Positions 2,444 through 63,860 of a stretch of 64,000 nucleotides of DNA are shown here, in pieces. The stretch comes from Alligator mississippiensis. Taxonomy: Eukaryota; Chordata; Crocodylia; Alligatoridae. The notes beneath the pieces were generated by a model that saw nothing but the letters and a program-made list of their open reading frames with translations, searched no databases and was not told where the DNA came from. The DNA lies in assembly GCF_030867095.1 (NCBI RefSeq), contig NC_081825.1:263324954-263388953 (forward strand), in the 5' to 3' direction. The translations under genes were made by a program, and so were the position numbers. Every line of letters begins with the position of its first letter. Within the stretch, counting starts at the first letter, position 1.

Positions 2444-4300
2444 TAGAGGTCTACTGAATTCATGGCAGAAGTGGGGTGCACTGTGGCTCCTTTAATCTTG
2501 CAGGTTCCCCCATACCTTTCCCCCCTACTGATTGGTGGAGGGGCCCCACTTGTGGCTCACTTCTGATCAGCAGGGACCCTGATTTTCCGCAATAAAAAAA
2601 TCACAAATTCTCTGATAAAAATCACAAAATCCATGGTTAAAATGAAATGCCCCCCACAGCCCTGTTGGTGTCCCTCACTGCCCTCGGCCCACAGCCCTCC
2701 AGTCCTGCTTGTGCCCCTTGTCCCCCACCTGCAGCCCCTGCCCCCCAGCTCTGCCCCCAAAGGAAGGCAGCAGCTGCTACAGCAGGAGCACAAGCCAGTT
2801 CCCCCCCTGCTGCCTTCCTGCTGCAGGCCTGGGCGGGGTAAACTCCCCCTGGCAGTGTGCACTCCTGGGGGGCTGGGGGGACCTGTGCACTCCTGGGGAG
2901 CTGGGGGGCTGGGGGGACCTCTGGGCGGGGGAAGGGTCGGTGCAGGCTTCAGGCTCATGCTTCCCACTCTGCTGCCCTCCCCCAGGCCCTCCAGAGCTCA
3001 GTGTGTGCAACCCGGTGCAACAGCACACGGGGGGGGGATGTGCATGAAAGCTGCCTGCTGCTGCAAGCTCCATTTTGCCCTGGTCATACTTCCTCTGCAG
3101 ACGGGGGCAGCAGTGAGGGACACAATCCTGTGCTGTCCCCATGCACACAGAGAAAGTGTGGCCAGGGCAGTGTGGAGCTTGCAGTGGCAAGCAGCTTTCG
3201 TGCATGGCCCTGCTGTGCCCTGCTGCGCTAGTCGCACATGCTGTGCTCTGGAGGGCCTGCAGGAGGGCAGCAGAGTGGGGAGTGCAGCATTTGCAACCCA
3301 GGGTTTGCAGCTGGCCATGCACTCCAGATGAGGGATGAGGGAGAGGGGGAGGGGGCTTGCAGTCTTCCTGCTCCTGGCTGGAGTGCCTGGCCAGCTGCAA
3401 ACTGCCTCCTCTGGCCAGAGAGTGCCCAAGCTGGCTGGGGGCTGAGGAGCAGGGGAGGCTGCAAACCCCACCCCTCCTCCTGGCCAGAGTGCCTGGCCGG
3501 CTGCAAACCTCCTCATTCCCTCAGCCAGCTTGGGTACTCTCCAGCCAGGCACTCTGGCTGGGGGGGGGGGGGGTTGCAGCTGGCCAGGAGTGGAAGAGGT
3601 TTGCAGCCAGCCAAGCACTCCAGCCGGGAGTGGGGAAGCTGAAAAATCCCTTTCCTGCTCCCTCATCCCCTAGCCAGCTTCCCCAACCCCAGCTGTGCCC
3701 TGCAACCCCCAATCCCCCCTTACCTCCAGCAAGAAGAGTGAGCCTAAAGCAGCCTCCAGTAAGTGTGAGTATTGGGCCCTGCCTTTCCCCCTCACCATTC
3801 CCCTCAGGGCAGGGTTGAGGGTTTCCCTGCCCCTTTTGCAAACAGATCTTGGAGGCTGGAACTCAGCCAGCCTGCAGAGCTCTTTGCAAAAGGGGGAAAT
3901 CCACGGGTTTCTCTTCTAAAAGGGAAAATCCATGTTTTCTCTGATAAAAATGGGAAATCCGTGGTTTTCTCTGTTTTTCCATGGGAAACGGAAAACCCAG
4001 AACCCTGCTAATCAGCAGGGAAGCAAAAACTGCAGTTTTAAATATGGTGCTGTTCTTACCTTCCATCACTGATTGGCTGAGGGGCCCTGGACAGCCCTGC
4101 TGTTTGCTGCTGACTGGTGGGGAGGCAAAAAAGGCACTGTGCTTAAAACCATGGTTTTAGCTTCCCTGCTGATCAGGAGGAAGTGGCGGGGTCCTCTGCT
4201 AATGTAGGGAGGGTAAGGGAAGAGGTGCACGCAGGGGAACATGCAAGATTAATGGAGCCACTGCACACTCTGCTTCCACTGTGAATTTGGTAGGTCCCTA
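2444..4300. mobile_element. hAT-like non-autonomous DNA transposon (outer)
   Basis: The ends form long diverged terminal inverted repeats. The left end begins TAGAGGTCTACTGAATTCA, and the right end reads TAGGGACCTACCAAATTCA on the minus strand. Similarity continues about 70 bp inward, through TTAATCTTGCA. Flanking 8-bp duplications are GTTATAGC (2436-2443) and ATTATAGC (4301-4308), one mismatch apart. No transposase frame is visible. The interior is mostly occupied by a second element at 2571-4007. Confidence 0.78.
2571..4007. mobile_element. hAT-like non-autonomous DNA transposon (inner, nested)
   Basis: The left end CAGGGACCCTGATTTTCCG is inverted at the right end, where the minus strand reads CAGGGTTCTGGGTTTTCCG. 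Flanking 8-bp sites CTGATCAG (2563-2570) and CTAATCAG (4008-4015) differ at one base and fit the hAT target pattern nTnnnnAn. The interior is GC-rich, with CTGCAAAC/CTGGCCAG-type internal repeats and a G16 run near 3560. Long open frames here are low-complexity shadows, not genes. A related left end occurs at 31991. Confidence 0.82.
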
Positions 4301-12645: not shown

Positions 12646-13157
12646 CTCCTCCATCCCTCCCTGTCTGGGAACCCCGCTCCTCCTGGCTATGCACCGCCCT
12701 ATCTCTAGGCACAGCTCATAGAATTGCAAAGACAAATGATTGACATGTATTTCCACCAAAGAAATGAAAATCAGGACTTTTTGCAGTCTGTTCCTCATTT
12801 AGAAATGGACAGGGGACAAAGGGTTTAAAATTAGGATGGTCCAGTATAAAATGGTACTAATGGCTACCCTATACCTCCTGCCTCCTCCTGCCCCTGGGGC
12901 ATTACTTACTTAGGGCTGCCTGGCCTATCTGTCCCAGGGGAGCAGGCAGCGTAACCCTTTCCTGCCTGCTCCCCAAGGACAGACAACGCAAGCAGCCACA
13001 AGTAAGCTGGGGAGGAGGAAGGGGGAGGGGACAGTAAGTAGGAATGTGCGTTGTGAGGAGGGCAGGGACAGGGACAGTGGGTCCAATCTGGGCCAGCAGA
13101 AAAGGGGGGCAGGTGGGGCATTTACACAAGGTGTAGCCACTCTAGGTGTAACATGTA

Positions 13158-15083
13158 AGTGTGCCTTAAGGAAATGATCCTTCGGGCACAAAGCGAGACG
13201 ATCCCGATGCGAGGAAAAAGAGGGAAAGGGGCCAGGAGGCTTCCTTGGCTGACCAGAGAAATCCAGGGCAGCCTAAGGGACAAAAGGGGAGCACATAAAA
13301 AGTGGAAACAGGGAGAGATCACCAAAGACGAATATACCTCCTCTGCTTGCACTTGTAGGGAGGCAGTTAGACGGGCCAAAGCTATCATGGAGCTGAGGAT
13401 GGCATCCCAAGTAAAGGACAACAAGAAATTGTTTCTTAGATATATAGGGAGTAAAAGGAAGGCCCAGGGAGGAATAGGACCCCTACTAAATGGGCAGAAG
13501 CAATTGGTGATGGACAGGGGGGACAAGGCTGAACTCCTCAACGAGTTCTTTGCCTCAGTGTTCCTAAGAGAGGGGCAGGACAAGTCTCTCACTGGGGTTG
13601 TAGAGAGGCAGCAGCAAGGCGCCAGACTTTCATGCGTAGACCCTGAGATGGTGCAGAGTCACTTGGAAGAACTGGATGCCTTTAAGTCGGCAGGCCCAGA
13701 TAAGCTCCATCCAAGGGTGCTGAAGGCACTGGCCGACATCATTGCAGAGCCACTGGCGGGAATATTTGAATGCTTGTGGCAAACAGGCCAAGTCCCAGAG
13801 GACTGGAAAAGGGCCAATGTGGTCCCCATTTTCAAGAAGGGGAGGAAGGAGGACCCAGGCAACTGTAGGCCAGTCAGTCTCACCTCCATCCTTGGAAAAA
13901 TCTTTGAAAAAATTATCAAGGCTCACATTTGTGAGAGCCCGGCAGGACAAATTATGCTGAGGGGAAACCAGCACGGGTTCATAGCAAGTAGATCATGCCT
14001 GACTAATCTAGTCTCCTTTTATGACCAGGTTACGAAATGCCTGGACACAGGAGGAGGGGTGGATGTCGTATACTTAGACTTCAGGAAGGCCTTTGATACG
14101 GTATCCCACCCCATACTGGTGAACAAGTTAAGAGGTTGTGACTTGGATGACTACACAGTCTGGTGGGTGGCAAATTGGCTAGAGGGTCGCACCCAGAGAG
14201 TCGTGGTGGATGGGCCGGTTTCGACCTGGAAGGGTGTGGGCAGTGGGGTCCCGCAGGGCTTGGTCCTTGGACCGATACTCTTTAATGTCTTCATCAGCGA
14301 CTTGGACGAGGGAGTGAAGTGTACTCTGTCCAAGTTTGTGGATGACACAAAGCTATGGGGAGAAGTGGACATGCTGGAGGGCAGGGAACAGCTGCAGGCA
14401 GACCTGGACAGGTTGGACAAGTGAGCAGAAAACAACAGAATGCAGTTCAACAAGGAGAAATGCAAAGTGCTGCACCTAGGGAGGAAAAATGTCCAGCACA
14501 CCTACAGCCTAGGGAGTGACCTGCTGGGTGGCACGGAAGTGGAAAGGGATCTTGGAGTCCTAGCGGACTCCAAGATGAACATGATTTGGCAGTGTGACGA
14601 AGCCATCAGAAAAGCCAATGGCACTTTATCGTGCATCAGCAGATGCATGACGAATAGGTCCAAGGAGGTGATACTTCCCCTCTATCGGGCGCTGGTCAGA
14701 CCGCAGTTGGAGTACTGCGTGCAATTCTGGGCACCGCACTTCAAGAGGGATGCGGATAACCTGGAGAGGGTCCAGAGAAGGGCCACTCGTATGGTTAAGG
14801 GCTTGCAGACCAAGCCCTATGAGGAGAGACTAGAGAACCTGGACCTTTTCAGCCTCCGCAAGAGAAGGTTGAGAGGTGACCTTGTGGCTGCCTATAAGTT
14901 CATCACGGGGGCACAGAATGGAATTGGTGAGGTTTTATTCACCAAGGCGCCACTGGGGGTTACAAGAAATAATGGCCACAAGCTAGCAGAGAGCAGATTT
15001 AGATTGGACATTAGGAAGAACTTCTTCACAGTTAGAGTGGCCAAGGTCTGGAATGGGCTCCCAAGTGAGGTGGTGCTCTCCCC
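13158..15083 (+). mobile_element. CR1 LINE, reverse transcriptase part (left part of a split copy)
   Basis: The copy is 5'-truncated in the endonuclease-RT linker ([16 protein letters not shown]) and runs through the whole RT. The frame at 13159-14424 includes [37 protein letters not shown] and FVDDTKLWG, where the usual FADD catalytic motif reads FVDD. A TGG-to-TGA change at 14422 stops the frame, which resumes at 14440-15201. The element is broken at 15083 by the LTR element, and its 3' end continues at 18332. It is inactive. Confidence 0.95.
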
Positions 15084-15778
15084 TGTGCGGGCCAGGAGTG
15101 ATCCAGGCCCTTTTTCGCGCCGCGCGGGCTGTGGCCAGCAGCCTGGGCACGCTGGGTCGGAGAAAACAGGCGGCACGCTAGAATTAGTCACGGACGCGTA
15201 ATGGTTGATTCAAGATTGTTTACTTACACCAAAGATGGTCACGGTGTAGGCTGGACAGTTTCCCAGGCACAGCTCCACTTAAATCCTCATTTGAGGACTC
15301 AGACAATATTCGGATCACTCCTACGGAGTTGTCGAGGCTCCGTGGATCCTTTTGCGCGCAGGGAGAGGGATACGTCGAGGACTGCGAACGGCGACGGGGA
15401 GAGGCTAGAGGCTGATCATACCTCTGTTGCCTGCTTGAAATGCGCTGGGTCCGATAGGCTCTGCAGCGCTTAGAGATCTTCACACAGCGTGAAGTCTCCT
15501 CCTCCTGGTGTTCGTGGAGTCCTCCAATTTGGGCAGAAACCACTCAAGCTTCTTATACGGCTAGCAAGCCAATCACTAGCTGCCACGTGTGAATAATTTA
15601 ATGCAAGCCAATAATGGGGCTCGAATTATAATACAAATGGCGGGAACTCTTTGCACCGTGCATCTCTGTGCTGCAAAGAAGAAATGCACACTGCAAAGAA
15701 AGCTACAATTTGGCGGGAAAATAATTCAGTGGTGCCAAAGCGCACACAGAACAAAAATCATACCTTTGGGTTGTGACA
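15084..15778 (-). repeat. 3' LTR of the 15084-18331 element
   Basis: On its own (minus) strand it begins TGTCACAACCCAAAGG and ends GGCCCGCACA. A TATA-like GTATAAGAAG lies at about 15560-15549. It aligns end to end with the other LTR without net length change. Confidence 0.92.
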
Positions 15779-15791
15779 TCCCCCCCTTGCT
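15779..15791 (-). other. Polypurine tract
   Basis: The minus strand reads AGCAAGGGGGGGA immediately before the 3' LTR. This is where the plus-strand DNA primer is normally made in LTR elements, and it fixes the element's orientation. Confidence 0.75.
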
Positions 15792-16208
15792 GAAGGCACA
15801 ACTGAATTATGCTGCACGCTTGTCATTCGAGTGATCCAGAGCTTTATCACAAGTCGTCAAACGAACAGACAAACAAACAAACATAAAATTCCCCAACATA
15901 AAATTCGCTCTCCTCGGATTGAGCTGCACAATAACCAACACAAATACACATAATCAGATTCATAACAAAACTACACAATCAGGGCTTCAGTGGGCGTCAT
16001 GGCAAAGTCATACGTCAGGCCCTCACTTCTTCCGATGATGTTATCCTTCTCAGGGCTTCTCTTTACCATGCACTCTGAATTCCGGATCTGTAAACAAAAA
16101 ACTCTCAAAAAAAAATAGGTTAACGCATCTCAACGTATTTACAAAGTTTCCATGGAACTTTACTATAATACAAGTGTTCACCACCCTAAACTACCCTCTT
16201 TTGTACAC

Positions 16209-16523
16209 TCAGCTAGATGAAATTGTTGAGGAGCTGTCATCTAGCTCTTCTAGATAACGGAAACCTAACTCGTAGGCCAGCTGCCATTGGCCTGCATCCC
16301 CTAAAATCCGAAGTTGCTGCTTATTGAGTCCAGAACGCTGTAGGAGAAATCCAAACATGTATCGCTCCTCTGGTGTTCTCTGTGGCAATGATGGAAGATC
16401 GGATTCACGATGTCTTGTGCCTTGAATCTCGGTCGGGTGTCGACGGTCCTGATCAATAGATAATCTTGGCTCCATCAGGATACGCAGTCGTGACAACTGA
16501 CAAAAGAGAGGCCAATTAGTCAT
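16209..16523 (-). CDS. LTR-element reading frame C, unknown 104-aa protein
   Basis: The frame starts inside the stop region of frame B. The overlap ATGACTAA contains the start of C (ATG, 16523) and the stop of B (TAA). The product has a charged N-terminal half and a C-terminal part (PEERYMFGFLLQRSGLNKQQ, then an acidic YLEELDD segment) that looks helical. No zinc knuckle, protease D[ST]G, or RT motif is visible. The tight overlap suggests coupled translation or a frameshift from B. Function is not recognised; it could be a relic of gag or a captured sequence. Confidence 0.5.
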   Translation of the reverse strand: MTNWPLFCQLSRLRILMEPRLSIDQDRRHPTEIQGTRHRESDLPSLPQRTPEERYMFGFLLQRSGLNKQQLRILGDAGQWQLAYELGFRYLEELDDSSSTISSS

Positions 16524-17415
16524 GCTTAAACTCCATGGACATGAGTTCCAGCCATGAGACTATAGCCTCGTCAGACTCCATTTCAGATTCTTTGTATAGC
16601 TGTTGTAATTCCATCCAAGCACGAATGCGACTGGTGACGACATCTCGCTCATCTGTTACTTGATTGATTGTGGCTGTAGGACAAGCTGCTCTTTCGGGAG
16701 TTGATGTTGTTACAGGCTGAACTGCTGCTGCGGGAGTCACTGTTGCTGTTACTTCTTCAGGCAGGAGGGGCGGATGCACTCCTCCACTTGACTCTCTCTT
16801 TCGTCGGCAGGAAGGCGTGGTCGGCAGAGGCGTCGCCGCATCGCTAGGCGGGGTTGCTGGAGACAACGCTGCGTCGATGGGCGGAGTCGCTGACCGAACT
16901 CTCGCGGATTCCTCCGAAGCTCCACCCTTCTCTTCTGGTTCTTCCACGCGGTCTCCCTCTTGCTCGGCGCCATCTTGGGCTGGCGTTTCAGGATCCCTTC
17001 TCTCAGCCGCTTCTTTGACCGCCTGAACAGCCATACGCAGCTGGGCCTTTAAACTTAAATTCTTGTTCATTAAATCAGCAATTGTACAGAAAGTTGCACT
17101 TAACTCTCCCCCCTTGTCGTACCGCGGGGCCACCCTCTCATCTGCAGCGCGTTCCTCCGTCTCCAGATCTTTGCGGAGCTCAGATGGAAGCTCGCGACCC
17201 CTTAATCTAGACGCCATGAGGGGAGGGAACCAGCCGATCGGCACCAGCTCTTCACTCTCCCGAGCATATCGTAGGCATCGGTCACGCTCCCGGGTGAGGG
17301 TCAGGTTCACTGCGCCCGCTGGGTTGACTCTGGTGAGGGACACAGTATCGAGGGGCCTGAACAGGACCCACTCGTCACTCATTATACACCTGAACACCGC
17401 AGGGAGCAAATACAC
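16516..17415 (-). CDS. LTR-element reading frame B, unknown 299-aa protein
   Basis: It is the longest open frame of the element, in the same frame as A (17455-17637) and separated from it by one TAA at 17457-17455 plus 13 codons. The first third is basic to mixed and ends in a likely amphipathic helix (LKAQLRMAVQAVKEAAERRD, about residues 122-141). The middle is rich in Pro, Thr, Ser and Ala, and the last third has an acidic, helix-prone segment (WMELQQLYKESEMESDEA). The size and the helix-plus-disordered layout would fit a Gag-like protein, but no capsid or zinc-knuckle motif is recognisable. The in-frame stop may be a mutation or a programmed readthrough site. Confidence 0.55.
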   Translation of the reverse strand: MYLLPAVFRCIMSDEWVLFRPLDTVSLTRVNPAGAVNLTLTRERDRCLRYARESEELVPIGWFPPLMASRLRGRELPSELRKDLETEERAADERVAPRYDKGGELSATFCTIADLMNKNLSLKAQLRMAVQAVKEAAERRDPETPAQDGAEQEGDRVEEPEEKGGASEESARVRSATPPIDAALSPATPPSDAATPLPTTPSCRRKRESSGGVHPPLLPEEVTATVTPAAAVQPVTTSTPERAACPTATINQVTDERDVVTSRIRAWMELQQLYKESEMESDEAIVSWLELMSMEFKHD

Positions 17416-17454
17416 TTCTCTCTCTCTCGGGGCTCCGTCTTCAGAGGCTCCCTC

Positions 17455-17637
17455 TTATCCCTTCAGCGAAAGGCGTCCGCTGATAAATCTCTCACCCGTT
17501 CTGCCCGCCTGGTGGTAAGCAATATGCACCTCCAGCTCCTCAAAACTTTTAATTTGGCATTTGTTATCGCGCCAAGGGCAGTTCTTAACTAATTCTAGCT
17601 CTAGCGTGTTTTCTCCTGATCCCATCCTCGTCGCCAT
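17455..17637 (-). CDS. LTR-element reading frame A, 60 aa with C2H2-like zinc finger
   Basis: The ATG at 17637-17635 uses the last base of the 5' LTR and the first two bases of the primer-binding site, so the frame begins exactly at the junction. Residues 20-42 read CPWRDNKCQIKSFEELEVH followed by IAYH, giving C20-x6-C27-x10-H38-x3-H42. This resembles a C2H2 zinc finger, including the Phe and Leu core positions. The frame ends at TAA (17457-17455) and stays open beyond it into frame B. I do not recognise the family. Confidence 0.55.
   Translation of the reverse strand: MATRMGSGENTLELELVKNCPWRDNKCQIKSFEELEVHIAYHQAGRTGERFISGRLSLKG
17619..17636 (-). promoter_or_regulatory. Primer-binding-site candidate
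   Basis: Directly after the 5' LTR the minus strand reads TGGCGACGAGGATGGGAT. TGG pairs with a tRNA CCA tail. TGGCGAC plus the later TGGGAT matches, from memory, the 3' end of a vertebrate tRNA-Arg (TCT) with a few mismatches. The tRNA identity is an inference. Confidence 0.6.
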
Positions 17638-18331
17638 GTGCAGGCCGGGAGCGATCCGGGCCCTTTTTCACGCCGCGCGGGCTGTGGCCAGCAGCCCAGG
17701 CACGCTGGGTCGGAGAAAACAGGCGGTACGCTAGAATTAGCCACGGACGCGTAATGGTTGATTCAAGATTGTTTACTTACACCGAAGATGGTCGTGGTGT
17801 AGGCTGGACAGTTTCCCAGGCACAGCTCCGCTTAAAACTTCGTTTGAGGACTCAGACAATATTCGGATCACTCCCACGGAGTTGTCGAGGCTCCGCGGAT
17901 CCTTTTGCATGCAGGGAGAGGCATATGTCGAGGATTGCGAACGGCGACGGGGAGAGGCTAGAGGCTGATCAGACCTCTGTTGCCTGCTTGAAATGCGCTG
18001 GGTCCGATAGGATCCGCAGCGCTTAGAGATCTTCACACTGCGTGAAGTCTCCTCCTCCTGGTGTTCGTGGAGTCCTCCAATTTGGGCAGAAACCACTCAA
18101 GCTTCTTATACGGCTAGCAAGCCAATCGCTAGCCTCCACGTCTGAATAATTTAACACAAGCCAATAATGGGGCTCGAATTATAATACAAATGGCGGGAAC
18201 TCTTTGCACCGTGCATCTCTGTGCTGCAAAGAAGAAATGCACACTGCAAAGAAAGCTACAATTTGGTGGGAAAATAATTCAGTGGTGCCAAAGCACACAC
18301 AGAACAAAAATCATACCCTTGGGTTGTGACA
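17637..18331 (-). repeat. 5' LTR of the 15084-18331 element
   Basis: It has the same 695-bp length and the same ends as the 3' LTR. A TATA-like GTATAAGAAG lies at about 18113-18102 and would start transcripts running toward lower coordinates. Confidence 0.92.
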
Positions 18332-18490
18332 TCCCCTACCCTGGGGGTCTTCAAGAGGAGGTTAGATAAGCATCTAGCTGGGGTCATCTAAACCCAGCAC
18401 TCTTTCCTGCCTATGCAGGGGGTAGGACTTGATGATCTATTGAGGTCCCTTCCAACCCTAACATCTATGAATCTATGAATCTATGAGTGG
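18332..18490 (+). mobile_element. CR1 3' end (right part of the copy at 13158)
   Basis: After the TCCCC duplication the sequence resumes at TACCCTGGGGGTCTTCAAGA and ends in the CR1 3' terminus with ATCTATGA repeats. It completes the CR1 that the LTR element split. Confidence 0.93.
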
Positions 18491-27919: not shown

Positions 27920-28609
27920 TTGTGGGTTAGGCTACTTGGGGGTCAAGAAGAAAGGGATTTGGTGGTAGGGGTCTGCTACAGACCCCCACATCAAGGGGAA
28001 GAAAGAGATTTGGGACTCCTGAGGCAACTCTCGGAGACCATAAAAGCTAAAGAGGCGGTAGCCATGGGGGACATAAACTACCCGGACATCTGCTGGGAGA
28101 CGCAGACAGCAAAGTCCCACCGCTCACGCAGGTTTCTAACCTGTGTACAGGACCTCCACCTGACACAGGAGGTGCATGGTCCCACTAGGGGGAATGCCAT
28201 ACTGGATCTGGTATTGGCAACGGGAGATGACATGGTAGCGGACCTCCAGATCGGTAACCATCTGGGGGACAGTGATCACCTAATAATAGAATACACCATA
28301 AGACGGCGAGTGGGTAAGGTAACTAGTAGGGTGAAAGTGCTAGACTTTAGGAAAGCTGATTTCAATGAACTCAGGCAATTAGTCAACGATGCACTGCAGA
28401 GTAGGAGATTTGAAGAAATGGAAGCCCAAGAAGGGTGGCTGTGCCTTAAGGAAACAATCCTTCGGGCACAAAGCAAGACGATCCCCGAGCGAGGCAAAAG
28501 AGGGAAAGGGGCCAGGAGGCTTCCTTGGCTGACCAGAGAAATCCAGGGCAGCCTAAGGGACAAAAGGGGAGCACATAAAAAGTGGAAACGGAGAGATCAC
28601 CAAAGATGA
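27920..28609 (+). pseudogene. CR1 ORF2, apurinic-like endonuclease part
   Basis: The frame carries the exonuclease-endonuclease-phosphatase fold motifs of CR1: VGVCYRPPH, MGDINYPDICW, ILDLVLATGDDM and LGDSDHLIIEY. The terminal SDH catalytic motif is retained. The N-terminal catalytic region is missing by 5' truncation or lies in unopened sequence from 27731. The frame ends in KRRDHQR after a 2-base deletion, which shifts it away from the reverse transcriptase frame. Confidence 0.88.
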
Positions 28610-28664
28610 ATATACCTCCTCTGCTCGTGCTTGCAGGGAGGCAGTTAGACGGGCCAAAGCTACC

Positions 28665-30263
28665 ATGAAGCTGAGGATGGCAACCCAAGTAAAAGACAAC
28701 AAGAAATTGTTTTTTAGATATATAGGGAGTAAAAGGAAGGCCCAGGGAGGAATAGGACCCCTGCTAAATGGGCAGAAACAATTGGTGACAGACAGGGGGG
28801 ACAAGGCTGAACTCCTCAACAAGTTCTTTGCCTCAGTGTTCCTAAGTGAGGGGCAGGACAAGTCTCTCACTGGGGTTGTAGAGAGGCAGCAGCAAGGCGC
28901 CAGACTTCCATGCGTAGACCCTGAGGTGGTGCAGAGTCACTTGGAAGAACTGGATGCCTTTAAGTCGGCAGGCCCGGATGAGCTCCATCCGAGGGTGCTG
29001 AAGACACTGGCCGACATCATTGCAGAGCCACTGGCAGGAATATTTGAACGCTCGTGGCGCACGGGCCAAGTCCTGGAGGACTGGAAAAGGGCCAACGTGG
29101 TCCCCATTTTCAAGAAGGGGAGGAAGGAGGACCCAGGCACCTATAGGCCAGTCAGTCTCACCTCCATCCTTGGCAAAATCTTTGAAAAAATTATCAAGGC
29201 TCACATTTGTGAGAGCCCAGCAGGACAAATTATGCTGAGGGGAAATCAGCACGGGTTCGTGGCAGGCAGATCGTGCCTGACCAATCTAGTCTCTTTCTAT
29301 GACCAGGTTACAAAACGCCTGGACACAGGAGTAGAGGTGGATGTCGTATACTTAGACTTCAGGAAGGCCTTTGATACGGTATCCCACCCCATACTGGTGA
29401 ACAAGTTAAGGGGTTGTGACTTGGATGACTACACAGTCCGGTGGGTGGCGAATTGGCTGGAGGGTCGCACCCAGAGAGTCGTGGTGGATGGGTCGGTTTC
29501 GACCTGGAAGGGTGTGGGCAGTGGGGTCCCGCAGGGTTCGGTCCTTGGACCGATACTCTTTAATGTCTTCATCAGTGACTTGGACGAGGGAGTCAAATGT
29601 ACTCTGTCCAAGTTTGCGGATGACACAAAGCTATGGGGGGATGTAGACACGTCGGAGGGCAGGGAACAGCTGCAAGCAGATCTGGACAGGTTGGACAAGT
29701 GGGCAGAAAACAACAGAATGCAGTTCAACAAGGAGAAATGCAAAGTGCTGCACCTAGGGAGGAAAAATGTCCAGCACACCTACAACCTAGGGAATGACCT
29801 GCTGGGTGGCACAGAGGTGGAAAGGGATCTTGGAGTCCTAGTGGACTCCAAGATGAACATGAGTCGGCAGTGTGACAAAGCCATCAAAAAAGCCAATGGC
29901 ACTTTATCATGCATCAGCAGATGCATGACGAGTAGGTCCAAGGAGGTGATACTTCCCCTCTATCGGGCGCTAGTCAGACCGCAGTTGGAGTACTGCGTGC
30001 AATTCTGGGCACCGCAATTCAAGAGGGATGTGGATAACCTGGAGAGGGTCCAGAGAAGGGCCACTCGTATGGTTAAGGGCCTGCAGACCAAGCCCTACGA
30101 GGAGAGACTAGAGAACCTGGACCTTTTCAGCCTCTGCAAGAGAAGGTTGAGAGGCGACCTTGTGGCTGCCTATAAGTTCATCACGGGGGCACAGAAGGGA
30201 ACTGGTGAGTTTTATTCACCAAGGCACCCCCGGGGGTTACAAGAAATAATGGCCACAATCTAG
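28665..30263 (+). pseudogene. CR1 ORF2, reverse transcriptase part
   Basis: This 532-residue frame holds an essentially complete reverse transcriptase. In order it shows [65 protein letters not shown] and the catalytic FADDTKLWG. The C-terminal region has RRATRMVKGLQTKPYEERL and RLRGDLVAAYKFITG. A 1-base deletion near 30210 shifts the last ~40 residues. The Asp-Asp pair is intact, unlike the copy at 13158. Confidence 0.92.
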
Positions 30264-30477
30264 CAGACAGCGGATTTAGATTGGACATCAGGAAGAACTT
30301 CTTCACAGTTCGAGTGGCCAGGGTCTGGAATGGGCTCCCAAGGGGTCTTCAAGAGGAGGTTAGATGAGCATCTAGCTGGGGTCATCTAGACCCAGCACTT
30401 TTTCCTGCTTATGCAGGGGGTCGGACTCGATGATCTATTGAGGTCCCTTCCGACCCTAACATCTATGAATCTATGGG

Positions 30478-60439: not shown

Positions 60440-63400
60440 CCAAAAGAAATTTCTTATTCAAGCCAGTTTACTTAGTGCAGTGGGCATGGCATGAAGAAAC
60501 CACACTCTGGCTCAGGCAAGACTCTCTGGTCAGGGGTGTCCAGGAGAGTCACCTAGTGCCACAGAGGCATGGTGTGGGGTGGCACAAAAAGGATTTGCAA
60601 TGATAATCTCAGGCCAAAACCCAGTTCCTTATTCAAGCCAATATATAGTACTAGCAAATTGCCTGTGAAGAATGACGGGGAGGGCGCAGGTACAAAGCCC
60701 CCCCCACCCCCACACACTTTGGGTGTGATCCCAATCCCCTCCTCCCTCCCACCCCTTCAGTCCGGTCCCACTCCCACCCCCTCCCCAATGCTTCAGGTCC
60801 GACCCCGTTTCCCTCCTTCCCCCCACAGCCGCTTAGGGTCTGCCTGGCCTGCATCTGCCTGCCTCCCTTCCCCTCATCTCCCTGTCCCTGCCAGTTGTCT
60901 GGGGTGGCATCCAGGATGCGAGACCACTGTGATACCCCACCGGCCCTCAGGCAGGAAGACATGGGGCAGCCCGGCTGCTCGGATGGCTGGGGCATGTTCC
61001 CCACTGCCAAAATTCCCTGGCAGCGGTGCAAACTTGGGCCTGTGCAGCATGTGCTGCCCAGCCAATCGCTGCCCGCCCTCTTGGAGGTGCACACGCAGCT
61101 GTCTAGAAGCATTACGGACAGACATGCAGACAGCCAGACTAAGCCTTTTATGATGTTAATGGATATGGGGGCTGCAGTTAGCAGCATGGCATGAAGAAAC
61201 CACACTTTGGGCCAGGCAAGACTCTGGTCAGAGATGTCCAGGGGAGTCTACCAGTGCCACAGAGTCATAGTGTGGGGTGGCCAAGAAGGATTTCCATTTC
61301 TAATCCCAGCCCAAAAAGAATTCTCTATTCAAGCCACTGTCCTTAGTACAGTCGCTGGGGGCAGGGGGAAGAGGAGGGTGCTCTGAGTTGACAGCATGAC
61401 AGAGCCAAATCACGCTTTGGGCCAGACAATACTCTGGTCAGGGATGCCTGAGAGAATTGCCCAGTGCCACAGTCATAGAGTGCGCTGGCCCAACAAGGAT
61501 TTCCATCTCTAATCCCAGCCCAAAAAAGTTCCTTATTCGAGCCATTATACTTAGAACAGTGGCTGGGGTGCTGTCACATAGCAGCCAGGCACAGCCAAAC
61601 CTCATTTTGGGTCGGGCAAGTCTCTGGTCAAAGATGTCCAAGAGAGTCCTCCGGGGGCACAGAGGTATGCCATGGGGTGGCCCAAGAAGGATTTCTAGCT
61701 GTAATCCTAGCTCAAAAACCTGTTCCTTATCTGGGTCCATACATCTAGCACAGTGGCTGGGGTGCTGTTAGTTAGCACCCTGGCATGGCCAAACTGCTTT
61801 TTGGGCCGGGCAAATTCTCTATTCAGAGATGTCTGGAAGCATTCTACCCCCCTCCCCCCCATGGCACAGAGGTGTGGTCTGGGGTGGCCCAAGAAGGATT
61901 TCTGGGAACAATCCCAGCCCCAAATCCAGTTCCTTATTCAGATCCAAGTACTTTGCACTGTGGCTGGGGGGCTGTCAGTTGGCAGCCTGGCATGTCTAAG
62001 CCACGCTTTGGTCTGGGCAAGTCTGTCCTCAGCAATGTGCAGGAGAGTCCCCTAGTGCCACAGAGGCATGGCGTGGGGTGGCCCAAAAAGGATTTCTAAC
62101 TATAATCCCAGCCCCAAATCCAGTTCCTTCTTCAGATCCATATACTTTGCACTGTGGCTGGGGGGCGGTGTCAGCTAGCAGCCTGGCATGCCCAAACCGT
62201 GCTTTAGGCCGGGTAAGTCTCTCATCAGAGATGCCCAATAGCGTCCCCTAGTGGCACAGAGACATGGTCTGGGGTGGCCCAAAAAGGATTTCTAGGTATA
62301 ATCCTATCGCAAATTCTAATTCCTTATTCGGATCCATATACTTTGCACTGTGCTGGGCTTTCAGTAGGAAGGCTGGCACAGCCAAACCGCACTTTGGGCC
62401 AGGCAAGTCTGTGGTCAGAGATGTCCAGGAGAGATCCCTGGTGCCACGAAGGCACAGCATGGGGTGACCCAAGAAGTATTTCTGGATATAATCTGAGCCC
62501 AAAATCCAGTTCCTTATTCGGGTCCAGATACTTAGCAGAGTGGCTGGTGTGGTGTCTGTTGGCAGCCTGGCATGGCCAAACTGTGCTTCAGACCGGGCAA
62601 GTCTCTGCTCAGAGATGTTCAGGACAGTCCCCCAGTGGCACAGAGACATGTTCTGGGGTGGCCCAAGAAGGATTTCTAGCTATATCCCAGCCCAAAATCC
62701 AATTCCTTATTTAGGTCCATTCATTTAGCACAGTGGCTGGGGTGCTGTTAATTGGCACCCTGGCACAGCCAAACTGTGTTTTAAACCGGGCAAGTTTCTA
62801 GTCAGAGATGTCTAGGAGTGTCTGCCAGTGGCCCAGAGACATGTTCCAAGGTGGACCAAGAAGGATTTCTGGGTATAATCCCAGCCCAGATTTCAGTTCC
62901 TTATTCGGGTCCAGATATTTAGCACAATATCTGGGGGTGGCGTCAGTTGGCAGCCTGGCATGGCCAAATCGCGCTTTGGGCTGGGCAAGTTTCTGGTTGG
63001 AGATGTCCAGGAGAGTCCCCCAATGCCACAGAGGTGCAGTCTGGGGTAGCCCAAAAAGGATTTCTGGGTGTAATCCCAGTCCGAAATCCAGTTCCTTATT
63101 CAATTCCATATACTTAGCACGGTGTCTGGGGGGTGATGGCAGCTGTCAACCTCGCACAGCTAAACAGCGTTTTGGCCCGGGGAAATCTCTGGTCAGAGAT
63201 GTCCAGGACAGTCCCCCACTGGCACAGGGAGATGGTCTGGGATGGCCCAAGAAGATTTCTGGGTATAATCCCAGCTCAAATTCCCATTCCGTATTCAGGC
63301 CCAGATACTTAGCAGTGTCTGGGGGGTGGTGTCAGTTGGCAACTTGGTACGGTTAAACTGCATTTTGGGATGGGCAGGTCTCTGGTCAGAGGTGTCCAGG

Positions 63401-63860
63401 AGCATCCCCCGGTGCCACAGAGGTGTGGTCTTGGGTGGCCCAAGAAGGATTTCTGGGTATAATCCCAGCCCAAAATCCAGTTCCTTATTCGGGTGTATAC
63501 AGTCAGCACAGTGGCTGGGGTGCTGTCTGTTGGCAGCCTGGCACAGCCAAACCACACTTTGGACTGGACAAGTCTCTGGTCACAGATGTGCAGGAGAGTC
63601 CCCCGGTCATGCAGAGGTGTTCTGATGGGTGGCCCAAGCAGAGTTTCTAGCCATAATCCCAGCCCAAAATCCAGTTCTTTCATCAAGCCATTATACTTAG
63701 TATAGTGGGCATGGGGACTGTTAATTGGCAGCCTGGCACAGCCAAACTGTGCTTTGGGCCAGGTGGGACTGTGGTCAGGGTTCTTTGGGACAGTCCCCCA
63801 GTGGCATCACCATGAAATTTGGGGTGGCCCAAGAAATATTTTGCCCCATAATCCCATCCT
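60440..63860. repeat. Tandem satellite, ~195-bp unit, about 15 copies
   Basis: The landmark GGGGTGGCCCAAGAAGGATT recurs at about 60576, 61275, 61478, 61676, 61882, 62078, 62271, 62462, 62655, 62850, 63043, 63240, 63434, 63630 and 63821. Spacing is 191-206 bp except for the first gap. Each unit also has CCAGTTCCTTATTC, ACTTAGCACAGTGGCTGGGG, TTGGCAGCCTGGCA and AGATGTCCAGGAGAGTCCCC. Units differ by roughly 10-20% by eye. As 195 is a multiple of three, open frames run across units on both strands (for example 62808-63356), and I do not call these genes. Confidence 0.93.
60645..61165. mobile_element. ~0.5-kb insertion in the satellite, class unknown
   Basis: The satellite unit breaks after CAAGCCAATATATAG and resumes at GGGGGCTGCAGTTAGCAGC. 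The gap of 699 bp between landmarks equals one unit plus about 500 bp. The insert begins TACTAGCAAATTGCCTGTGA and ends near AAGCCTTTTATGATGTTAAT. It is GC-rich with C-runs; no RT or transposase is visible. Confidence 0.6.

What the first reader, a model, noticed from the sequence alone, without database searches (positions are those of the whole stretch)
15084..18331. Complete LTR element with unrecognised reading frames and no replication enzymes
The structure is textbook: equal 695-bp LTRs, TG/CA ends, a TCCCC target duplication, a primer-binding site and a polypurine tract. The interior encodes three small unrecognised frames and no protease, reverse transcriptase or integrase. It is either a non-autonomous family mobilised in trans or a carrier of captured sequence. 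This is the best candidate in the window for something undescribed.
Basis: partly seen in the sequence, partly recalled or inferred. Interest (0 to 1): 0.75.

Follow-up and report, generated by a model that had tools for sequence, protein, structure and literature searches.

The report
Gag-only satellite retroelement of alligators
The element is one of many copies of an old alligator virus-like element that kept only pieces of a retroviral shell gene and appears to have spread by borrowing the enzymes of related retroviruses in the same genome; the surprise is that even its shortened shell-protein fragment seems to have been preserved by selection.

Summary
In detail: a complete 3,248-bp LTR element on the minus strand, inserted in a LINE, with 5-bp duplications, primer-binding site and polypurine tract. 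It is a non-autonomous family, but its frames are not unknown or captured sequence: they are pieces of one gag gene. Each piece tested matches, in order, the Gag of three pol-bearing endogenous retroviruses read in the same genome. These share its primer-binding site; profiles find protease and reverse transcriptase in one, reverse transcriptase and integrase in another. The genome is American alligator. Of 40 places scored, 35 carry the same interior nearly whole. Two forms share one backbone: a long one whose gag runs on through the capsid-like region, and the window's short one, in which a 0.2-kb module replaces 0.56 kb and cuts Gag short. An older short subfamily shares the module, so forms recombined. 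On internal branches of a 27-copy tree the module's changes are mostly silent (29 silent, 19 replacing; 0 of 300 neutral simulations as extreme). So the truncated protein itself appears to have been selected. Closest parallels: mammalian MaLR, plant TR-GAG, pol-less Athila. It may already be in Repbase, which I could not check.

The parts
15079..15083 (.). target-site duplication TCCCC (left)
15084..15778 (-). 3' LTR, 695 bp
   Evidence: 40 of 40 scored genome places (the window's two LTRs among them) at 93-100% identity
15779..15788 (-). polypurine tract AAGGGGGGGA
   Evidence: sequence; a like tract before the 3' LTR in the 6 other copies for which one search printed it, one with a G-to-A change
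15789..16208 (-). non-coding 3' region of the interior
   Evidence: no silent-change excess on internal branches when read as if coding (syn 14.8, nonsyn 47.2)
16209..16523 (-). ORF3, 104 codons: C-terminal part of Gag
   Evidence: matches the C-terminus of alligator proteins P0014, P0015, P0018 and of Gag in pol-bearing ERVs L053-L055
16510..16706 (-). short-form module: divergent capsid-region segment with the stop that truncates Gag
   Evidence: 48-51% as aligned to long-form copies but 85-89% to the older short subfamily; conserved protein in 27 copies
16516..17382 (-). ORF1b, 288 codons: middle part of Gag, truncated
   Evidence: 13 annotated but uncharacterised Alligator proteins, best E 4e-135; Gag of L053-L055
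17455..17637 (-). ORF1a, 60 codons: N-terminal part of Gag, cut off from ORF1b by one in-frame TAG
   Evidence: continuous with ORF1b in alligator proteins such as P0002-P0005; 57% to the Gag start in L053
17619..17636 (-). primer-binding site TGGCGACGAGGATGGGAT (tRNA-Ser(GCT) by recall)
   Evidence: the same site with a different next base occurs 265 times in the genome, 0 in the control
17637..18331 (-). 5' LTR, 695 bp
18332..18336 (.). target-site duplication TCCCC (right)

Best explanation
A copy of a non-autonomous endogenous-retrovirus (ERV) family of the American alligator that carries only gag. Shown: LTRs, primer-binding site, purine tract, Gag identity, multi-copy family, two recombining forms, and pol-bearing relatives with the same primer-binding site. 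Inferred: the element was transcribed from its LTR, its RNA was packaged with particle proteins of pol-bearing ERVs, primed by the same tRNA, and reverse-transcribed and integrated by their enzymes. The window's form makes at most a truncated Gag plus a C-terminal piece, so it needed helper capsid protein too. Its truncated product was nevertheless maintained by selection while the family spread. I take it to have helped its own RNA reach or compete for helper particles (least certain step).
For: Interior nearly whole in 35 of 40 scored places; 84-94% identity in the 34 other than the window. Of 18 regions read round LTR matches, 4 hold short-form and 6 long-form elements, 1 a rearranged copy, 7 solo LTRs; the interiors, 1.8-2.24 kb, leave no room for pol. 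Each window piece matches Gag of all three pol-bearing ERVs read: N-terminus 57% to L053, middle 29% to L055 (E 2e-27), module (part of the middle) 36% to L054 (E 2e-6), C-terminus 61% over 44 aa to L055. Retropepsin and RT in L053; RT and integrase in L075, which continues L054. PBS pattern: 265 hits, 0 control. Selection: module, internal branches 29 silent/19 replacing, 0 of 300 neutral simulations reach it; terminal branches 44/80. ORF1 (0-927) and ORF3 against the 3' region on internal branches p=0.002 and 0.018.
Against: The actual helper is not identified: the pol-bearing ERVs read share only 75-82% over 87-198 bp of LTR (plus 40- and 50-bp pieces) with the window, and about 40% of Gag with P0005 over most of its length. 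No expression or mobilisation data. A recalled tRNA-Ser(GCT) 3' end gave 0 matches in the genome, so the primer tRNA is not confirmed. AlphaFold gave no usable model (pLDDT 29.8), so a capsid fold is not shown. One of three pseudo-frames of the 3' region also looked near-coding in a side test (15 silent, 16 replacing). The 15 Gag codons just before the module show no silent excess.
Confidence: 0.9

Rival explanations
1. Pure passenger: the gag pieces are relics; the silent-change excess was inherited from gag-complete ancestors, and the short form spread only through its cis signals (LTR, PBS, packaging site).
For: Short and long forms are alike outside the module (90-97%), so selection on ORF1 and ORF3 could have acted in long-form copies. 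The window copy has an in-frame stop. In pairwise tests the module alone was not significant: 11 to 101 of 200 neutral simulations reached the observed value in its 7 pairs.
Against: Among the copies read the module occurs only in short forms, and it shows the clearest signal once internal and terminal branches are parted. 23 of 27 copies keep its frame free of stops (21 free of stops and gaps) and 26 of 27 keep the stop that truncates it.
Confidence: 0.25
2. One-off internal deletion of an ordinary ERV.
For: No pro or pol profile in the three frames.
Against: 35 of 40 scored places share the same interior nearly end to end, in subfamilies whose LTRs differ by about 19-26% over the aligned pieces.
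Confidence: 0.02
3. Carrier of captured host sequence.
For: The frames have no credible Pfam match, nor do the 11 relatives scanned.
Against: Every frame matches Gag of pol-bearing ERVs in order; all 18 distinct protein hits are uncharacterised or hypothetical Alligator proteins.
Confidence: 0.02
4. Ty3/Gypsy-type LTR retrotransposon rather than a retrovirus derivative.
For: 5-bp duplication and gag-only anatomy would also fit; env was not searched for in the relatives.
Against: RT and integrase of the relatives match retroviral enzymes best among solved structures, integrase to PFV integrase.
Confidence: 0.05

Closest known systems
MaLR (THE1, MST, MLT) of mammals
   Same: Pol-less ERV-derived family whose interior holds only a putative gag frame, unable to replicate alone (passages of PMC10735291).
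   Different: MaLR belongs to the mammalian ERV3/ERVL lineage; this family is alligator, with a Gag related to pol-bearing alligator ERVs. The short form has lost most of the capsid-like region. No sequence comparison with MaLR Gag was made.
Pol-less Athila families and TR-GAG elements of plants
   Same: LTR plus gag without pol; Athila gag under purifying selection and recombination between families (passages of PMC2410132); TR-GAG transposition seen directly (passages of PMC8704663).
   Different: Plant elements (Athila Ty3/Gypsy, the TR-GAG case ATCOPIA63), gag intact in the copies described; here a vertebrate ERV with a form carrying only gag fragments.
ERV4 / CrocERV groups (SFV1-*_AMi) of crocodilians
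   Same: 5-bp duplication, no zinc finger found in Gag; 22 of 45 crocodilian groups are ERV4, and a deletion derivative is mentioned (abstract, section 4 part 1, sections 8 and 10 and passages of PMC4299795).
   Different: Those groups are defined by pol; this family has none. Membership by RT phylogeny was not tested.
Cattle ERVK[2-1-LTR] D-type, MusD/ETn, KoRV/RecKoRV
   Same: Defective forms with a swapped central segment; in cattle they outnumber competent ones (passages of PMC10924933).
   Different: The cattle D-type lacks functional genes; here a coding fragment seems to have been under selection.

Membership tests
LTR retroelement (ERV type) | two LTRs, TG..CA, target duplication, PBS, PPT | tested here: met
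LTR retroelement (ERV type) | multi-copy family with the same structure | tested here: met
Non-autonomous gag-only family (MaLR-like / TR-GAG-like) | gag present, pro-pol absent, in many copies | tested here: met
   Pfam scan on the window's three frames, other copies judged by their length and alignment; in the short form gag is only partial
Non-autonomous gag-only family (MaLR-like / TR-GAG-like) | mobilised in trans by a helper | not testable with these tools
   pol-bearing ERVs with the same PBS exist, but no mobilisation data
MaLR (as a family) | descent from mammalian ERVL | not tested
   no MaLR or ERVL sequence compared; host is a crocodilian, so only 'works like' is claimed
ERV4 | 5-bp target duplication | tested here: met
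   window; exact in 8 of 10 other proviral copies and 14 of 16 solo LTRs
ERV4 | no zinc finger in Gag | tested here: met
   no Pfam zinc knuckle in 11 alligator proteins or in two L053 Gag pieces; L054 and L055 Gag not scanned
ERV4 | no dUTPase in pol | tested here: met
   no dUTPase hit in the L075 pol pieces, one copy only
ERV4 | no GPY/F motif after integrase | not tested
   no motif scan made
ERV4 | RT groups with ERV4 in phylogeny | not tested
   no reference ERV4 RT at hand; best solved relatives of RT and IN are foamy-virus type, by recall for entries 7o0h and 7kse, by name for PFV integrase
tRNA-Ser(GCT)-primed ERV | PBS complementary to the 3' end of that tRNA | tested here: inconclusive
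   tRNA end recalled only; a 22-base recalled pattern had 0 matches in the genome; a second pattern did not complete

The most novel reading that the evidence does not exclude
A satellite-like ERV lineage that lost pol and most of its capsid-like region yet kept, by selection during tens of millions of years of spread and across recombining backbones, a truncated Gag fragment that serves its own transmission, for example by steering its RNA into, or competing within, particles of foamy-like alligator ERVs.
Probability: 0.35. Interest if true: 0.7.

Novelty: new variant of a known kind. Interest (0 to 1): 0.45.

Why it matters
Gag-only retroelement families are known from mammals and plants, but whether they are plain parasites or contribute protein is open. 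Here one genome holds a pol-less family in two forms on one backbone, pol-bearing relatives with the same primer-binding site, and a codon-level sign that even a capsid-poor Gag fragment was selected. That makes 'does a defective element's own protein matter?' directly testable. It also explains 18 'uncharacterized' or 'hypothetical' Alligator proteins in public databases as retroviral gag or parts of it.

Tried and rejected
Pfam on the window frames and on 11 alligator proteins: nothing credible. Sequence search of solved structures with the window frames and P0005: only chance matches or none. AlphaFold on P0005 with 13 sequences: pLDDT 29.8, discarded, no fold search made. First pairwise dN/dS (0.38-0.62 for ORF1, 0.15-0.59 for ORF3, window against 7 copies) looked too good, since my neutral simulations give about 0.56-0.62 for ORF1 and 0.70-0.89 for ORF3, not 1. 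Against such simulations (200 each) the observed value was reached in at most 10 of 200 in 8 of 9 ORF1 pairs, 5 of 9 ORF3 pairs and 0 of 7 module pairs. I therefore rely on the branch split, where post-insertion decay is set apart. The 15 codons just 5' of the module show no such excess (internal branches 5 silent, 10 replacing). A count of group-fixed differences gave 28 silent, 26 replacing in ORF1 (short forms, tolerance 1) against 9/25, 3/22 and 15/16 in three pseudo-frames of the 3' region; pooled 27/63, p=0.013, but the third pseudo-frame alone looks like ORF1. L053's apparent 3' LTR has no purine tract before it, so that copy is broken; it is used only as evidence that gag, protease and RT lie together. 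The script stopped with an error after most of its output; frames of L037 and L038 were not listed. Distribution outside Alligator was not tested beyond the protein searches, which scored limited candidate lists.

Full report
What is there. The element occupies 15084-18331 and reads on the minus strand: 5' LTR 17637-18331, primer-binding site 17636-17619, three sense frames, purine tract 15788-15779, 3' LTR 15778-15084, flanked by TCCCC. The LTRs are equal in length and 659/695 identical, half of the 36 differences lying in CpG context. The target is the 3' part of a LINE (CR1-like by recall); joined flanks align across the junction without gaps to four other copies of that LINE in the window and with 26 gap positions to a fifth.

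Host. The genome is American alligator: contig C11 has exactly the length (75,951,454) given for the contig of alligator protein P0005; five other contigs agree within 0.01% and a sixth within 0.02% with contigs given for such proteins.

The frames are gag. Searching 5.8 billion proteins with ORF1b gave 13 hits, all uncharacterised Alligator proteins, 12 from A. mississippiensis and 1 from A. sinensis. In several of them ORF1a and ORF1b form one frame. ORF3 gave two hits, both A. mississippiensis, and longer relatives join the capsid-like region to ORF3 in one frame. So the three frames are one protein, interrupted in the window by an in-frame TAG and by a replaced middle. Pfam does not know it. 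Its identity came from the genome. The primer-binding site with a different next base occurs 265 times (0 in the reversed control). I read four such places: two taken from the list (L052, L053) and two chosen because an RT hit lay downstream (L054, L055). L052 is another pol-less long form, with an open run of 587 codons covering all but the N-terminal end of gag. L053, L054 and L055 carry a Gag that matches the alligator proteins nearly end to end. In L053 it is followed by retropepsin (PF00077, E 5e-4) and reverse transcriptase (PF00078, E 4e-12). L054 has a 100-codon frame with a DTGA motif after gag (by eye) and continues as L075, an 880-codon open frame with RT (E 1e-21) and integrase (PF00665, E 2e-9) and no RNase H hit. 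In L055 pol is known only from an RT hit. Each window piece, searched on its own, hits all three of these Gags in the right order (the database was four loci only, so E-values are for a small search). Matching by eye, at least 12 of the 100 listed primer-site places (of 265) have an RT hit 2.1-2.3 kb downstream on the same strand.

A family in two forms. All 40 scored LTR places, the window's two among them, are 93-100% identical over nearly the whole LTR (7,517 first-look candidates). Of the 30 LTR loci cut out, 14 adjoin interior sequence (two of them the window's own) and 16 are solo LTRs, 14 of these with an exact 5-bp duplication. Of 40 interior places scored (1,775 candidates), 35 span nearly the whole interior, the window included. 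Of 18 regions read, 4 hold short-form elements, 6 long-form, 1 a rearranged copy and 7 solo LTRs; the interiors are 1.8-2.24 kb and leave no room for pol. Outside interior positions 931-1127 the short and long forms of this subfamily are 90-97% alike. There the short form's 197 bp is only 48-51% alike to the long form as aligned, but 85-89% to an older short subfamily (L049-L051) whose LTRs are about 74-81% like the window's over the aligned pieces. The module is a distant homologue of the same Gag region. The forms are therefore mosaics made by recombination, as template switching between co-packaged RNAs would give (inference).

Age. K2P between LTRs is 0.030-0.054 in 10 copies, the window being the highest. 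With the rate used by Chong et al. (3.9e-10, passage of PMC4299795) this is roughly 38-69 million years, an upper range as CpG sites mutate fast; outside CpG context the window's LTRs differ at 3.0%.

Selection. In 27 short-form copies the module's 62 compared codons show 29 silent and 19 replacing changes on internal branches (positions 7/11/31) and 44 and 80 on terminal branches (38/39/52); Fisher p=0.004, third-position excess p=2e-5. None of 300 neutral simulations with CpG hypermutation reached the internal-branch values; on terminal branches 11 and 14 of 300 did, so a weak excess is there too. ORF1 and ORF3 show weaker signals of the same kind in 14 copies, which could come from long-form ancestors. 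23 of 27 copies have no stop in the module frame, 21 neither stop nor gap, and 26 keep the stop that truncates Gag. The 27 copies are the window plus 26 drawn from the best LTR or interior matches, not a random sample. Results that do not support selection are listed under Tried and rejected.

How it most likely works. Shown: anatomy, copy number, gag identity, coexistence with pol-bearing relatives sharing the primer site. Inferred: LTR transcription, packaging by helper proteins, priming by the shared tRNA, reverse transcription and integration by helper enzymes. Least certain: that the truncated Gag aids its own RNA. The window copy is old and its own gag is broken by a stop.

Comparison with what is known. 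Mechanistically it works like MaLR, TR-GAG and pol-less Athila families (passages read). Its relatives fit ERV4 in duplication length, lack of zinc finger and lack of dUTPase, but the defining RT phylogeny was not tested. No published description turned up in the searches listed under Tried and rejected; Chong et al. deposited 187 LTR and 109 internal consensus sequences from crocodilians in Repbase, so the family may well be there.

Noticed in passing
G000 C1:472.0-477.4 Mb and C115:39777-40235: Seven RT copies 97-100% identical to the L053 query (one is L053 itself), and six copies with an equal 877-codon open pol frame (five here, one on C115), lie in a few megabases near the end of the largest contig: a local amplification of pol-bearing ERVs.
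   Followed up: no
G000 C2:284129295-284133699: Two short-form interiors 2.6 kb apart on one strand, as in a tandem pair sharing a middle LTR.
   Followed up: no
window 61376-63806: Tandem array of a 194-bp unit, 12.5 copies, 73% matches.
   Followed up: no
window 13160-15065 and 28440-30342: Two LINE copies 94% identical; the LTR element lies at the 3' end of the first. Several further copies of this LINE are in the window.
   Followed up: partly
window 2960-3282 and 12905-13006: Sequences that match their own reverse complement at 73-76% (palindromes).
   Followed up: no
window 17637 and the alligator protein P0005: The gag frame's first ATG straddles the LTR end and the primer-binding site, and in P0005 the annotated protein starts further upstream; the true start is not known.
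   Followed up: no
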